Source: Closterium sp. NIES-65 | Lineage: Eukaryota; Streptophyta; Zygnematophyceae; Desmidiales; Closteriaceae | Direction: 5' to 3' | Assembly (NCBI GenBank): GCA_948144175.1 | Contig: CANXME010002007.1 | Span: forward strand, 310,001-374,000 | Length of the DNA stretch: 64,000 nucleotides | Part shown: in pieces, positions 1 to 59,068 of the stretch | Position numbering within the stretch: the stretch's first letter is position 1 | How the letters are laid out: each line of letters opens with the position of its first letter | Notes under the pieces: generated by a model | What the model saw: only the letters and a program-made list of their open reading frames with translations | What the model was told of the DNA's origin: nothing | Databases searched by the model: none | Program-made: the position numbers and the translations under genes

Positions 1-394
1 GCTGTGGAAACCCATGGCTGCTCATGCGCCGAGGTACCGGTTTTCCTGAAACTCTTAGCAGACACAGCGGCTCGGCGCCATTTCAATGCCGTCTCCAAAT
101 CCTTTCATGCCACTAAGTTTCTGCACTAGTTCAGACAGAGATGGTCAGTGGTCCTTCAGAGGGCCCAATCTATGGGCCTCCTACTCAAGCTAGGGGAGGC
201 GGTGGCGGCAGAGAACCCGCCTGTAGGCGGTATTGGGCAGGAACTGAACCTAGGGGACTGTTTCGCAGTGGTCGAGCCCTTCCTCGAGCTCTAGAGCGGG
301 GGTAGTCGGTAGGATTTGTTGCTGTGTTTGTTTGTTACCTTTGCTTCTATAACTTGCATGCTTGTAACCCGCTTCTATATCAATACAAGGACCA
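1..394 (+). pseudogene. 3' end of a family A LINE (truncated by window edge)
   Basis: Reading frame 1 from base 1 gives the C-terminal tail of the family A LINE protein, with motifs such as ETHGCSCAEVPVFLKLLADT and RQRWSVVLQRAQS. It ends at TAG 292-294 and is collinear with the last ~100 residues of the intact copy at 51,687-56,459. An in-frame TAG at about 127-129 replaces a CAG (Gln) of the intact copy, so this copy is dead. The 3' UTR (295-394) ends in the family signature TATCAATACAAGGACCAT and runs directly into (GA)n. Its 5' part lies outside the window. Confidence 0.85.
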
Positions 395-395
395 T

Positions 396-470
396 GAGAG
401 AGAGAGAGAGAGAGAGAGAGAGAGAGAGAGAGAGAGAGAGAGAGAGAGAGAGAGAGAGAGAGAGAGAGGA
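396..470. repeat. (GA)n microsatellite, LINE tail/junction
   Basis: About 75 bp of nearly pure GA dinucleotide lie between the 3' end of one LINE and the first 5' unit of the next. The same arrangement recurs at 11,009-11,088, 13,355-13,506, 45,054-45,172 and elsewhere. Confidence 0.97.
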
Positions 471-679
471 ATAGCCTCTGCCCTCTGCCTTTAGCCTCTG
501 CCCCCTTACCTCTAGGCCCTACTTTAGGCCTTCCTAAGGCCGTTTTCTCATTGTTCGTTTGGCGGCTGAAAATTTTTCGCTCGTTCGAGAGAGCGAGAGA
601 GAGAGAGAGAGAGAGAGAGAGAGAGAGAGAGAGAGAGAGAGAGAGAGAGAGAGAGAGAGAGAGAGAGAGAGAGAGAGGA
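471..679 (+). repeat. Truncated extra 5' UTR unit of LINE A1 plus (GA)n
   Basis: Bases 471-586 are a near-identical copy of 680-790: both start with atagcctctgccctctgcc and run to ggcggctgaaaatttttc. Bases 587-679 are (GA)n with one GCGA interruption. The unit stops just before the hairpin region of the complete leader that follows. A1 therefore carries two tandem leader units separated by GA, the same organisation as the unrelated-sequence leader of A3 (51,293-51,546). Confidence 0.85.
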
Positions 680-795
680 ATAGCCTCTGCCCTCTGCCTT
701 TAGCCTCTGCCCCCTTACCTCTAGGCCCTACTTAAGGCCTTCCTAAGGCCGTTTTCTCATTGTTCGTTTGGCGGCTGAAAATTTTTCACTCGCGC

Positions 796-843
796 CGGCC
801 GCCTTCGGCGGCCGACGCTCGACGGCGCGGCCTGCGGCCGCGC
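796..843 (+). other. Paired GC hairpins in the LINE A1 leader
   Basis: Two perfect stem-loops are visible: stem CGGCCGCC / GGCGGCCG with loop TTC (796-814), and stem GCGCGGCC / GGCCGCGC with loop TGC (825-843). Both stems recur in A3 at 51,551-51,569 and 51,580-51,598 with the second loop changed to TTC, so sequence differs where pairing does not. Shorter GC-rich versions precede the B1 ORF (about 6,000-6,030) and B3 (about 13,615-13,655), in each case shortly upstream of a CAAG motif. The structure is probably an RNA element. Its function (translation, RNP binding or self-cleavage) is not shown by the sequence. Confidence 0.6.
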
Positions 844-56459: not shown

Positions 56460-56548
56460 GGGGGATATAGGGTAGGACATGCCTTTGTGTGTATGCTTCT
56501 ATACCTTGCATGCTTGTACCTGGCTGCCATATCAATACAAGGACCATT

Positions 56549-56625
56549 AGAGAGAGAGAGAGAGAGAGAGAGAGAGAGAGAGAGAGAGAGAGAGAGAGAG
56601 AGAGAGAGAGAGAGAGAGAGAGAGA
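56549..56625. repeat. (GA)n tail of LINE A3
   Basis: 77 bp of pure GA directly following the 3' signature. Family B sequence begins at 56,626. Confidence 0.97.
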
Positions 56626-58248
56626 TATTGTCGCAGCCGTAGCGAGTCACTGCTCCACACGGCCCTCACAACAGCCACGATCCACTACCCCACGGTCAAA
56701 CTTGAGCATAGCCTCACCTGGCGGCAGTCAACGTTACCAGTTAGACTTGGTGGCTTAGGCTTAATCGATCCAATCTCGGAGGCTCCAGGTGCGTATCTTT
56801 TCTCAATAGTGGCGGCACAAAACTACTACAACAGCTAAACTTTCCGCGGGATCACTCCTTTGCCCGTGTTGCCACCCTGCTCTCCCCAGACCATGCACCA
56901 GTGGGGGGGGTGTCTATACTGGCGGAACTTGAGGCACGACTGCCGAGAGGGGGCCAGATTCCTACTATGCGACTTCCGCACAAACCTGGGCATGCAAAAA
57001 AACCTGCAGCTGCAACTCTCAAACCACATCAATAGAGCGAGAGCGGCCGAGCTAGTGGTGGATACTAGAATTGACAGACTCGGCACGGACAACAAACACC
57101 CCCTGCACTTGCTCAGCCTTCAGGGCATAGGCGCGGGGGACTGGCAGAACACGGTCTTGACCCGGACGGACCTCACTCTCTTCCCAGGGCAGTTCTCCAT
57201 GGCCCTGGGACTACGTCTCGGGCTTACCTTGCCAGTCACCGACCAGCGCCCCTACAACAAAGAACGGTCTGCCACCACAGATAAGAGCCTACCCAACCAC
57301 CTGTTACGCTTTGGGGAAGGGGGAGACTGCACCAGAAAACACAACGCATTGGTCTACGCATGCCTACGCATGGCTCAAGAGGCTAAGTACATGACATTGC
57401 ATGAGACTACGATATCTTCACCGCCGGTGGATCGGAAGTAGGCGGATCTGAGCATCCGTGACTCAGAGACAGCTGGGACATGGGTGACAGACGTCACCAT
57501 GACGAACCTGGTTCTGCAACAGCGGGATCTAGAGGCAGCAAGGGCCCCAGGGTGGGCGGCTGAGGAGGCGTGCATCAGCAAGCACAAGATGTACCAGGAG
57601 AGGCTGACGTGTGTGGTGTTCCTGGGACTAGCGGTAGAGACCTATGGCGCATTAGCGGCAGACATAGTCAAATTCTATTGTATATTAGCCACTACTGCCG
57701 CCAAGAGGGGTTCCCGCCACAGTCCACAGACCACGGTGACAGTAAGGCTCAACGCCCACTACCACCAACGCTTCTCTGTGATGCTTCAGCGATGCCAGGC
57801 GACGGGGCTGCTCACCAAGTCCCACCGAGCGGCGAAATCATCCTCCCCGCAGGAACCAACAGACCCATGAGAGCCACGGTTGGGCGAATTATGGCAGGTG
57901 CTGGAGGGCGGAGTAGGGAGCTGAGTGGTTGAGTGGGGGAAAGGGGAAAGGGAGGGTGAGTGCTAGGTGAGCGTGACAGCTCCGGCCTGGGTTGCATAGC
58001 TAAGGTTGCTCTGCATGCTCTGCTTAGCCTGCCTGCGTAGCTATGATTGCCTTGCTGTGTCTACCCAGTTGTGCCTCGCATTGTGACCTTTACCTTGCCA
58101 GGTCGTGCTCGTTCCATACCTGCCCCTGCCTTGCCCGTCGCCATTGTAGGCCTTGCATGATGGATTGCTTGTCTATACTAGCATTCTCTATGTCACATTC
58201 CTGCCATGCCTATAAGACTATTAACATATCAATGCAGGACTGCTTGAA
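56626..58248 (+). pseudogene. LINE B7: 5'-truncated, decayed family B copy
   Basis: It starts after (GA)n in the post-RT region (SLTWRQSTLPVRLGGLGLID aligns with SLVWRQATLPIVMGGVGLID of B1). Frames at 56,860-57,441 and 57,484-57,870 cover GAGDWQNTVLTRTDLTLFPG, LPNHLLRFGEGGDCTRKHN and TWVTDVTMTNLVLQQRD. Both Cys of the C-x-C motif appear lost (RPYNK) and the final Cys is Phe (LLRF). TAG near 57,439 interrupts. The 3' end ATATCAATGCAGGACTGCTT is recognisable, but no GA tract follows. Confidence 0.75.
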
Positions 58249-58894
58249 TCCACGGCTTACTGTCTAGTGGATGAGCAGACGACGGACCTAACGATGATGG
58301 ACCAGAGCTCAGGTGCAGTCTACATCTGCGATGTTACTATCACGGATCCAATCAGTACCCGGGACAAGACGGCGGTGAAAGGCAGGGGATGGGCAGCGAG
58401 AGAGCAGGCGGATAAGAAGATCAAACACTATGCTAGTCGGCCTGACACTGTGGGATTTTTCCCCCTAGCCGTTGAGACGTATGGGTGTCCATGTGCGGAG
58501 GTGCCTGCGTTCCTGAAACTGCTGGTGGATTCTGCTCCTAGGCGACACTTCAACGCCGAACCTAAATCCTTTCATGCAGCTAGATTCCTCCACCTTTTCA
58601 GGCAGAGATGGTCAGTGGTGCTACAGAGGGCTCAGTCGGTGGGGTATCTCATGAAGTCATGCTAGGCAGCTATGGCAAAACACCCACCTGTTGGGGGAAC
58701 ACAACACGAGCTCCACCTTGGTGATTGCCCTCACTCTCATTGAGCCCCTGGTGGAGGTTTAGAGGGGCAGGCCACATGATGTTTGGTTAGTTTGTTGGTT
58801 TGCTTGTATCTTGCTAGTTTAGTTTCTTCATGTTGACAGTTGCTGAACCCTGCATGTTTGTACCTTTCGCTATATCAATTCATGGACCATTAAA
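58249..58894 (+). pseudogene. LINE A4: 5'-truncated family A fragment
   Basis: Begins gatgagcagacgacggacct at the same place in the endonuclease region as LINE A2 (about the EEQTADF codons). The frame from 58,267 (MDEQTTDLTMMDQSSGAVYI, CDVTITDP, GRGWAAREQADKKIKHYAS) is open to TAG 58,663-58,665, where other copies read on; the UTR follows. It ends TATCAATTCATGGACCATT and then imperfect GA. Confidence 0.78.
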
Positions 58895-59068
58895 GAGCGA
58901 GAGAGAGAGAGAGAGAGAGAGAGAGAGAGAGAGAGAGAGAGAGAGAGAGAGAGAGAAAGAGAGAGGAAGAGGGAGAGAGAGAGAGAGAGAGAGAGATAGA
59001 TAGAGAGAGAGAGAGAGAGGAGAGAGAGAGAGGGGGGGGGGGAGGGAGGGAGAGAGAAAGAGAGAGAT
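58895..59068. repeat. Imperfect (GA)n tail after LINE A4
   Basis: About 170 bp of GA with GAAA, GATA and G-run interruptions, more degenerate than the other tracts. It is the last LINE tail in the window. Confidence 0.93.

What the first reader, a model, noticed from the sequence alone, without database searches (positions are those of the whole stretch)
1..59068. A LINE group that appears to insert specifically into (GA)n microsatellites
At least nine LINE copies or fragments lie on the same strand. Their 3' signatures (TATCAATACAAGGACCATT or relatives) pass directly into GA in A1, A2, A3, A4, B1, B2, B4, B6 and the copy at the left edge. Truncated copies (A2 at 11,089, B2 at 11,825, B4 at 44,587, B7 at 56,626) and full leaders begin directly after GA. 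Random insertion would rarely place so many copies in one dinucleotide. The protein carries a restriction-like nuclease motif, and such LINEs are known for sequence-specific targets (R2 in 28S rDNA; Dong in TAA repeats). A GA-repeat target in this lineage is, to my knowledge, not well described.
Basis: partly seen in the sequence, partly recalled or inferred. Interest (0 to 1): 0.85.

Follow-up and report, generated by a model that had tools for sequence, protein, structure and literature searches.

The report
Jumping gene that targets GA repeats
A family of copy-and-paste jumping genes in this unnamed large genome inserts itself, facing one way relative to the repeat, into stretches of repeated GA letters, and leaves GA on both sides so that the landing site is kept; the element also seems to carry a second gene on its opposite strand.

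Summary
The 3' signature occurs 385 times; 338 places have GA directly behind it. Of the first 100 exact signatures, 97 run into GA-like repeat. GA is also at 5' ends: 16 of 16 full-length and 12 of 14 truncated copies with complete 3' ends, against 8.3% background. In 20 loci plus the window all 98 GA tracts lie on the element's sense strand. GA tracts without the element are common (14 of 20 sampled loci). Near-identical empty sites show GA before insertion: flank-GA79-flank against GA81-element-GA79, and a second case. Truncated 5' joins tend to use GA microhomology (8 of 10 scored). LINEs targeting microsatellites are known (Dong in TAA, Togen in TG), so this is a new variant. The RT is nearest to R2 among solved structures; clade and nuclease fold are unproven. 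In passing: a roughly 470-codon antisense ORF inside the element appears to be under purifying selection.

The parts
396..468 (+). (GA)n before the first 5' monomer of copy A1; follows an older copy's 3' end at the left edge
468..5813 (+). LINE copy A1: 5' monomer from 468, GA 595-677, body 677-5813; longest open sense frame 832 codons, so frame broken
5819..5834 (+). short GA tract between A1 and B1
5835..11008 (+). LINE copy B1 (family B), near full length, frame broken
11009..11088 (+). (GA)n: 3' flank of B1 and 5' flank of truncated copy A2
11089..11689 (+). 5'-truncated copy A2, starts in GA; 2-nt GA microhomology at the join
11727..11825 (+). (GA)n between A2 and B2
11826..13354 (+). 5'-truncated copy B2, followed by GA 13355-13500
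44512..44587 (+). (GA)n 5' of B4
44588..45054 (+). 5'-truncated copy B4, followed by GA 45055-45173
45174..45885 (+). A-like fragment between two GA tracts, lacking its 3' end (exception)
46004..51217 (+). truncated B fragment (from 46004, after GA) and a further B copy from about 46.7 kb whose 5' join is not in GA; 3' end 51199-51217 followed by GA
51232..51291 (+). (GA)n (imperfect) before copy A4
51292..51434 (+). 5' monomer of A4: TATA-like box and its own internal GA tract (51412-51434)
51435..56548 (+). body of copy A4, ending in TATCAATACAAGGACCATT
51687..56459 (+). single sense ORF of A4, 1590 aa
54306..54917 (+). reverse transcriptase domain (Pfam RVT_1, E 1.7e-16; nearest solved relatives are R2 proteins)
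55791..56030 (+). CCHC knuckle (aa 1369-1389) and AD-x14-DVT motif (D1433, D1448) read as restriction-like nuclease; dN/dS of this part 0.02-0.04
51718..53130 (-). antisense ORF (470 aa) overlapping the N-terminal third of the sense ORF
56550..56625 (+). (GA)n 3' of A4 and 5' of the next fragment
56626..58245 (+). B7 fragment; starts after GA (first ~500 bp unaligned), 3' end without GA (exception)
58246..58891 (+). A-like truncated copy that abuts B7 without GA; its 3' end is followed by imperfect GA 58899-59032

Best explanation
These are non-LTR retrotransposons (LINEs) whose insertion target is a (GA)n/(TC)n microsatellite. Shown by sequence: GA at both junctions, one orientation relative to the repeat, a fixed 3' end, near-identical empty sites with GA, GA microhomology at most truncated 5' joins scored, GA inside the 5' monomers. 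Inferred: the element's protein nicks the TC strand of a GA tract; the RNA's 3' GA tail pairs with the TC primer and reverse transcription starts there; at the far end the new cDNA is joined to the upstream GA by GA pairing, at the GA tract of a 5' monomer for full-length copies or at an internal GA/GAGA for truncated ones. Because GA remains on both sides, each insertion keeps and adds landing sites, which builds head-to-tail arrays in one orientation.
For: 3' end: 385 signatures, 338 with GA directly behind; 97 of the first 100 exact ones in GA-like repeat. The base between signature and GA is A in 99 of the 100 places listed, i.e. a fixed phase. 5' end: GA within about 60 bp upstream of 16 of 16 full-length copies, 8 of 9 truncated copies at 90% identity or more, 4 of 5 more diverged truncated copies; background 8.3%. 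Strand: 98 GA tracts against 0 TC in 20 loci plus the window; neighbouring signatures within 20 kb lie on the same strand in 31 of 33 cases, beyond 60 kb in 5 of 13 (112 places listed). Empty sites: C441 (flanks 99.3% and 99.9% identical) has GA79 where C106 has GA81 + 5103-bp element + GA79 with no flank lost; C1796 (98-99%) has interrupted GA where C222 carries a full copy; three paralogues (92-96%) of the L023 flank carry GA with no element in the stretch fetched. 5' joining: GA microhomology of 2 nt or more in 8 of 10 truncated joins scored, null 0.178, binomial P 3e-5. Specificity: (CA)10 tracts are nearly as common (3,241 starts), and none flanks the junctions printed. Coding capacity: dN/dS between subfamilies is 0.08-0.14 in the RT and 0.02-0.04 at the C-terminus; copies within subfamilies are 97-99% identical, and 5 of 16 near-full-length copies have one open frame of at least 1576 codons.
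Against: Three of 100 exact signatures are not in GA: C3 and C365 (the same flank) and C595. Two neighbouring pairs of signatures within 20 kb are on opposite strands (C1672, 1.1 kb apart; C1662, 10.4 kb apart). Some old copies in the window lack GA at one end. Of 25 fragments with incomplete 3' ends only 7 have GA upstream; their 5' ends are mostly unaligned rather than true ends. In the count of 16 of 16, copies with several monomers are scored at the last monomer, where GA belongs to the element; the outermost monomer is also preceded by GA in each. Nick position, strand choice and GA pairing are inferred. The nuclease is a motif only: the C-terminal profile found nothing in PDB. Target duplication cannot be separated from microsatellite slippage or from GA carried by the element itself.
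Confidence: 0.87

Rival explanations
1. The GA tail is made by the element itself (template slippage, as for the simple-repeat tails of algal LINEs), insertion is random, and 5' GA is only part of the element's 5' monomers.
For: LINEs of green algae often carry 3' simple repeats such as (ATT)n or (CA)n (PMC3747384, passages seen). Full-length copies do carry GA in their monomers.
Against: Truncated copies without monomers also start in GA: 8 of 9 and 4 of 5. Empty sites already have GA. GA is found without the element in 14 of 20 tract loci.
Confidence: 0.06
2. Arrays come mainly from template jumping between RNAs, or from recombination between GA tracts, so most 5' GA is just the tail of the neighbouring copy and says little about targeting.
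For: Head-to-tail copies joined by GA are common. A GA tract joins two broken elements at 45886-46003, and heterologous monomers are joined by GA in L024 and L074.
Against: Copies sit in GA with non-element or GA-rich flanks on one or both sides (L015, L017, L020, L026); the two empty-site pairs look like clean single insertions; neighbours differ in subfamily and identity.
Confidence: 0.15
3. Target choice is made by chromatin or a DNA-binding protein at GA repeats, and the nuclease is only weakly sequence-specific.
For: No N-terminal zinc finger or Myb-like domain was recognised, so the GA-reading part of the protein is unknown.
Against: Junctions lie inside the dinucleotide tract with a fixed phase, more precise than tethering alone would give.
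Confidence: 0.15

Closest known systems
Dong (R4/Dong clade), target (TAA)n
   Same: LINE with restriction-like nuclease that inserts into a microsatellite; paper passages seen (PMC7998251)
   Different: Different repeat; a diverged N-terminal Myb/SANT-like domain is reported there, none was recognised here; repeat-bearing 5' monomers are not mentioned in the passages read
Togen families of fish, target (TG)n
   Same: RLE-group LINE, dinucleotide-microsatellite-specific (PMC4640811, passages)
   Different: TG instead of GA, fish hosts; clade relation to this element not tested
R2 of animals (28S rDNA)
   Same: RT nearest among solved structures (R2Tg 9dou E 6e-11; 9nl3 E 8.8e-12 with the profile); CCHC followed by a nuclease-like motif at the C-terminus (the R2 layout is recalled)
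   Different: Target is GA, not 28S; no N-terminal zinc finger/Myb found; no HDV-like ribozyme match at the 5' end
SART1 of Bombyx (telomeric TTAGG repeats)
   Same: Inserts within tandem repeats in one orientation; pairing of RNA with the target strand is proposed (PMC7265360, passages)
   Different: R1-clade element with an APE-type endonuclease (recalled), telomeric pentamer repeat
Kibi/Koshi (Tx1 group) in fish, TC and related repeats
   Same: A GA/TC-type microsatellite target (recalled; Kojima and Fujiwara 2004 was seen only as a reference entry)
   Different: APE-type endonuclease (recalled); none found here

Membership tests
Non-LTR retrotransposon (LINE) | reverse transcriptase, fixed 3' end, variable 5' truncation | tested here: met
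LINE with restriction-like endonuclease (RLE group) | C-terminal CCHC followed by PD-(D/E)xK-type nuclease | tested here: inconclusive
   conserved C-x-C-x13-H-x3-C and AD-x14-DVT; the C-terminal profile has no PDB match up to E 10; structure prediction unavailable
LINE with restriction-like endonuclease (RLE group) | no APE endonuclease domain | tested here: met
   Pfam finds only RVT_1 above its cut-off
Microsatellite-specific LINE | same simple repeat on both sides, pre-existing at empty sites | tested here: met
R2 clade | insertion in 28S rDNA | tested here: not met
   junctions are GA tracts
R2 clade | N-terminal zinc finger and Myb | tested here: not met
   no Pfam hit; no C2H2 pattern in the A4 protein; a diverged Myb could be missed
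R2 clade | HDV-like ribozyme at the 5' end | tested here: not met
   no such Rfam match up to E 1 in window 51000-57000
R4/Dong, NeSL/Togen or HERO clade | RT phylogeny placing it in the clade | not testable with these tools
   no reference sequences of these clades turned up in the collections at hand; only R2 and group II-type RTs in PDB
Kibi/Tx1 group | APE-type endonuclease | tested here: not met

The most novel reading that the evidence does not exclude
An ambisense, microsatellite-targeting LINE: it inserts into GA repeats, carries GA pads inside its 5' promoter-like monomers so that second-end joining by GA pairing yields full-length copies and new targets, and encodes a second, antisense protein of about 470 residues (arginine- and glycine-rich middle, helical-looking end, perhaps a Gag/ORF1-like RNA-binding protein) on the strand opposite the N-terminal third of its polyprotein.
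Probability: 0.55. Interest if true: 0.88.

Novelty: new variant of a known kind. Interest (0 to 1): 0.74.

Why it matters
Site-specific LINEs often use up a scarce target such as rDNA (general knowledge). This one uses a cheap dinucleotide repeat and keeps GA on both sides after insertion, so targets are not consumed and copies pile up in oriented arrays. The empty-site pairs, the 5' GA microhomology and the GA-bearing monomers make the poorly understood second half of LINE integration open to test by sequence, and a GA-reading nuclease would be of practical interest. If the antisense gene is real, it is a gene layout that I can recall in no other LINE (searches named in the Full report section).

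Tried and rejected
Rejected: the self-made tail as a full account (empty sites, truncated 5' ends). Rejected: chance or mere abundance of GA (CA is nearly as common). Looked for a 5' ribozyme: no match. Looked for relatives in viral contigs: 37 stretches matched a pattern, none confirmed. The C-terminal profile against PDB: nothing. Empty alleles of further loci: L016 is filled in both copies; L026 hit only itself on the left; L022 lies in a duplicated region; for L010, L018, L020 and L025 only repeats, other copies or themselves were listed, and I did not follow these. Host lineage: not identified. Whole-genome count of a family-B signature: not completed.
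Full report
What was given. A reader claimed that LINE copies in the window sit in (GA)n at both ends. The window is G000:C1709:310001-374000 of an unnamed eukaryotic assembly, 874,075,685 bases in 2,400 contigs. No name, relatives or file were available, so work beyond the window used pattern counts, DNA searches and fetched stretches.

Window. All 15 merged (GA)6+ tracts are on the + strand and none is TC. 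Copies of two families, A and B, lie head to tail on the + strand, mostly joined by GA. Nine 3' ends run into GA, some imperfectly. Copy A4 (51292-56548) holds one ORF of 1590 aa (51687-56459). Exceptions are the 3' end at 58227-58245, the fragment end at 45885 and the join near 46.7 kb. Control: in the 14-44 kb stretch, which holds the Copia ORFs, GA or AG of three or more units lies within about 60 bp of 4.0% of positions tested, and no tract of six or more units falls there.

3' junctions in the genome. The 19-base signature with up to one mismatch occurs 220 + 165 = 385 times, reversed control 0. With any base plus GAGAGAGAG behind it, again up to one mismatch in all, 198 + 140 = 338. Of the first 100 exact signatures listed, 88 have that GA directly. 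I read the other 12: nine are short (7-8 nt) or imperfect GA, three are not (C3 and C365 with the same flank, and C595). The base before GA is A in 99 of the 100 places listed, so the phase inside the dinucleotide is fixed; relatives ending in GCTT join in the other phase.

5' junctions. One search fetched 20 stretches of up to 9.5 kb, from the first 22 of the 100 listed places (two places lay in stretches already covered). Together with the window, one search gives GA within about 60 bp upstream for 16 of 16 copies complete at both ends; 8 of 9 truncated copies at 90% identity or more (the exception, L012 7439, is a deletion derivative whose 5' monomer is itself preceded by GA); and 4 of 5 more diverged truncated copies (exception L009). 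Background is 8.3%. For copies with several monomers the 16 are scored at the last monomer, where the GA is the element's own; the outermost monomer is also preceded by GA in each. Of 34 pieces with a full 5' end but a cut or diverged 3' part (single monomers counted one by one) 32 have GA. Of 25 fragments incomplete at the 3' end and truncated or unaligned at the 5' end, 7 have GA; most of these are diverged and their true ends are unknown. Several truncated joins carry 3-32 nt of filler between GA and the aligned element.

Orientation. 98 GA tracts against 0 TC tracts in the element's orientation in 20 loci plus the window; one TC tract appeared in the 20 short 3' stretches (L044). Element matches of 100 bp or more: 495 on the same strand as the chosen copy, 8 on the other, these from two places. 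Among the first 100 listed signatures, neighbours within 20 kb are on the same strand in 26 of 26. With the 12 further places listed it is 31 of 33; the two exceptions are on C1672 (1.1 kb apart) and C1662 (10.4 kb apart); beyond 60 kb it is 5 of 13.

GA without the element. The genome has 2,056 + 2,024 starts of (GA)10 tracts (tracts with G two bases before are not counted). I fetched 20 tract loci in list order from the 100 listed, with about 250-300 bp on each side. I left out the C32:1366382 tract, already known as an element locus, and also skipped C32:1551586, taking C35 in its place, so the sample leans slightly against the element. 14 of 20 show no element in the stretch by my library and by eye; 6 show one (L049, L051, L058, L061, L063, L066), two of them (L063, L066) by eye only. 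(CA)10 starts number 1,681 + 1,560, so GA is not the only common dinucleotide.

Empty sites. Joined flanks of L015 (contig C106) hit contig C441 with both flanks only 414 bp apart instead of 5,599. C441 reads flank, GA79, flank; C106 reads flank, GA81, a 5,103-bp element, GA79, flank; identity is 99.3% (424 bp) and 99.9% (706 bp) and no flank base is lost. C441 may be the other haplotype or a recent duplicate; either way it shows a site without the insertion. L027 (C222) has a partner on C1796 (98-99%) whose site is an interrupted GA tract behind the 3' end of an older family-B copy. The right flank of L023 has three paralogues (C1673, C1523, C1683; 92-96%) with GA and no element in the stretch fetched, and a fourth (C1532) with an independent element end in the second GA tract of the same unit. 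A paralogue of the L017 left flank holds GA followed by the 5' monomers of another subfamily. Of the 11 loci whose flanks were searched, these two (L015, L027) gave a clean filled/empty pair.

5' structure. Full-length copies begin with one to five monomers of roughly 110-175 bp, each opening right after GA, with a TATA-like box in most types (not in the W1 type), and ending in GA before the next monomer. If transcription starts downstream of the TATA-like box (inferred), the RNA would carry the GA of the next monomer, and joining at that GA would give the clean monomer starts seen. One search examined 22 5' joins; 10 had an aligned reference close to the GA edge and were scored (7 direct, 3 within a few bases). 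The reference sequence just upstream of the break matches GA for 2 nt or more in 8 of 10, and 4 nt or more in 3 of 10, where random breaks give 0.178 and 0.021. L012 7096, whose filler itself starts at a GAGA in the element, would make it 9 of 11. The other joins had filler or no clean reference.

Protein. RT is supported by Pfam, and its nearest solved relatives are R2 proteins. Five full-length proteins align end to end. A CCHC and an AD-x14-DVT motif follow the RT; that part has dN/dS 0.02-0.04. No Pfam, PDB or structure evidence confirms the nuclease. Copies fall into subfamilies 97-99% alike inside and about 74-78% alike between, with W_A4 91-93% from the W_A1 group, which with the near-identical empty sites suggests recent activity.

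Antisense ORF, seen in passing. In the first 400 codons of the sense ORF, differences between subfamilies fall mostly at sense codon position 2, which is the third position of a minus-strand frame. In the first 300 codons the sense frame has dN/dS 1.57-1.84. Over the whole antisense block, in five pairs, the antisense frame has dN/dS 0.31-0.39 and the sense ORF frame 0.87-1.32 (frame identity checked). One other sense-strand frame shares the same third positions (0.41-0.52), but it has 11-14 stops in the six copies tested, while the antisense frame has none in 6 of 6 and the ORF frame none in 4 of 6. These six were picked as open copies: of 15 family-A copies, eight have an antisense frame of 467 codons or more from its Met and seven are broken. 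In six other copies (L011, L012, L013, L018, L019, L026) the antisense protein scores better in sum than the sense one over the same DNA, though in an inverted piece of L013 the sense reading is better (135 against 94 bits) and in L018 the margin is small; family B1, the B copy at 46.6 kb and L028 show no clear relative. Pfam and PDB give no convincing match. Whether the sense frame is also translated there, and the promoter, expression and function, are unknown.

Known systems. RLE-type LINEs targeting microsatellites exist: (TAA)n for Dong (PMC7998251, passages), (TG)n for Togen, and some HERO families (PMC4640811, passages). R2 target changes: PMC5035012, passages. Algal LINEs with 3' simple repeats are tabulated in PMC3747384 (passages). 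Searches covered the held library for microsatellite or target-specific LINEs and for RLE LINEs of green algae; their listings and abstract starts name no GA-specific LINE. Searches looked for antisense ORFs with LINEs (10 papers and 15 of 25 papers listed; listing and abstract starts only). Subscription papers are mostly missing from that library, so this is weak evidence of absence. Kibi as a TC-targeting element is recalled.

Verdict. The finding is right: a GA-microsatellite-targeting LINE group, shown by flanks, strand bias and empty sites. It is a new variant of a known kind. Nicking, priming and second-end joining are inferred from junctions.

Noticed in passing
window 51718-53130 (-); also 962-2770 (-), L013, L015, L017, L020, L022, L023: An antisense ORF of about 470 codons overlaps the N-terminal third of the LINE sense ORF and looks to be under purifying selection (antisense dN/dS 0.31-0.39 against 0.87-1.32 for the sense ORF frame over the same block; no stop in 63 of 90 scored genome matches).
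   Followed up: partly
L012 7330-8580 and from 8587: Short deletion derivatives: one 5' monomer joined straight to the last ~1.15 kb of a B-type element, 98-99% alike to B2, after GA; possibly a non-autonomous passenger.
   Followed up: partly
L024 1672-1861; L074: 5' monomers of one subfamily joined through GA to monomers or bodies of another, hinting at GA-mediated recombination or template switching.
   Followed up: no
window 45174-46003: A GA tract joins an A-type fragment lacking its 3' end to a B-type fragment lacking its 5' end, as if two elements had recombined in GA.
   Followed up: no
L017 163-262 and 7190-7289: A 100-bp stretch (97% alike) follows two different GA tracts 7 kb apart; its origin is unexplained.
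   Followed up: no
L021 around 5948-6051: Inverted repeat on the two sides of a GA tract: a stretch left of a 3' end recurs reverse-complemented as filler at the next copy's 5' end, like a snap-back join.
   Followed up: no
G000 C1672:1428414(+)/1429501(-) and C1662:1019047(-)/1029478(+): Two neighbouring signature pairs on opposite strands, against the usual one-way arrays; not fetched.
   Followed up: no
window 62646-63330 (-): Overlapping minus-strand ORFs made of tandem repeats (units like MGTLGPLPPWGTALRPAWGP), a coding-like minisatellite outside the LINE cluster.
   Followed up: no
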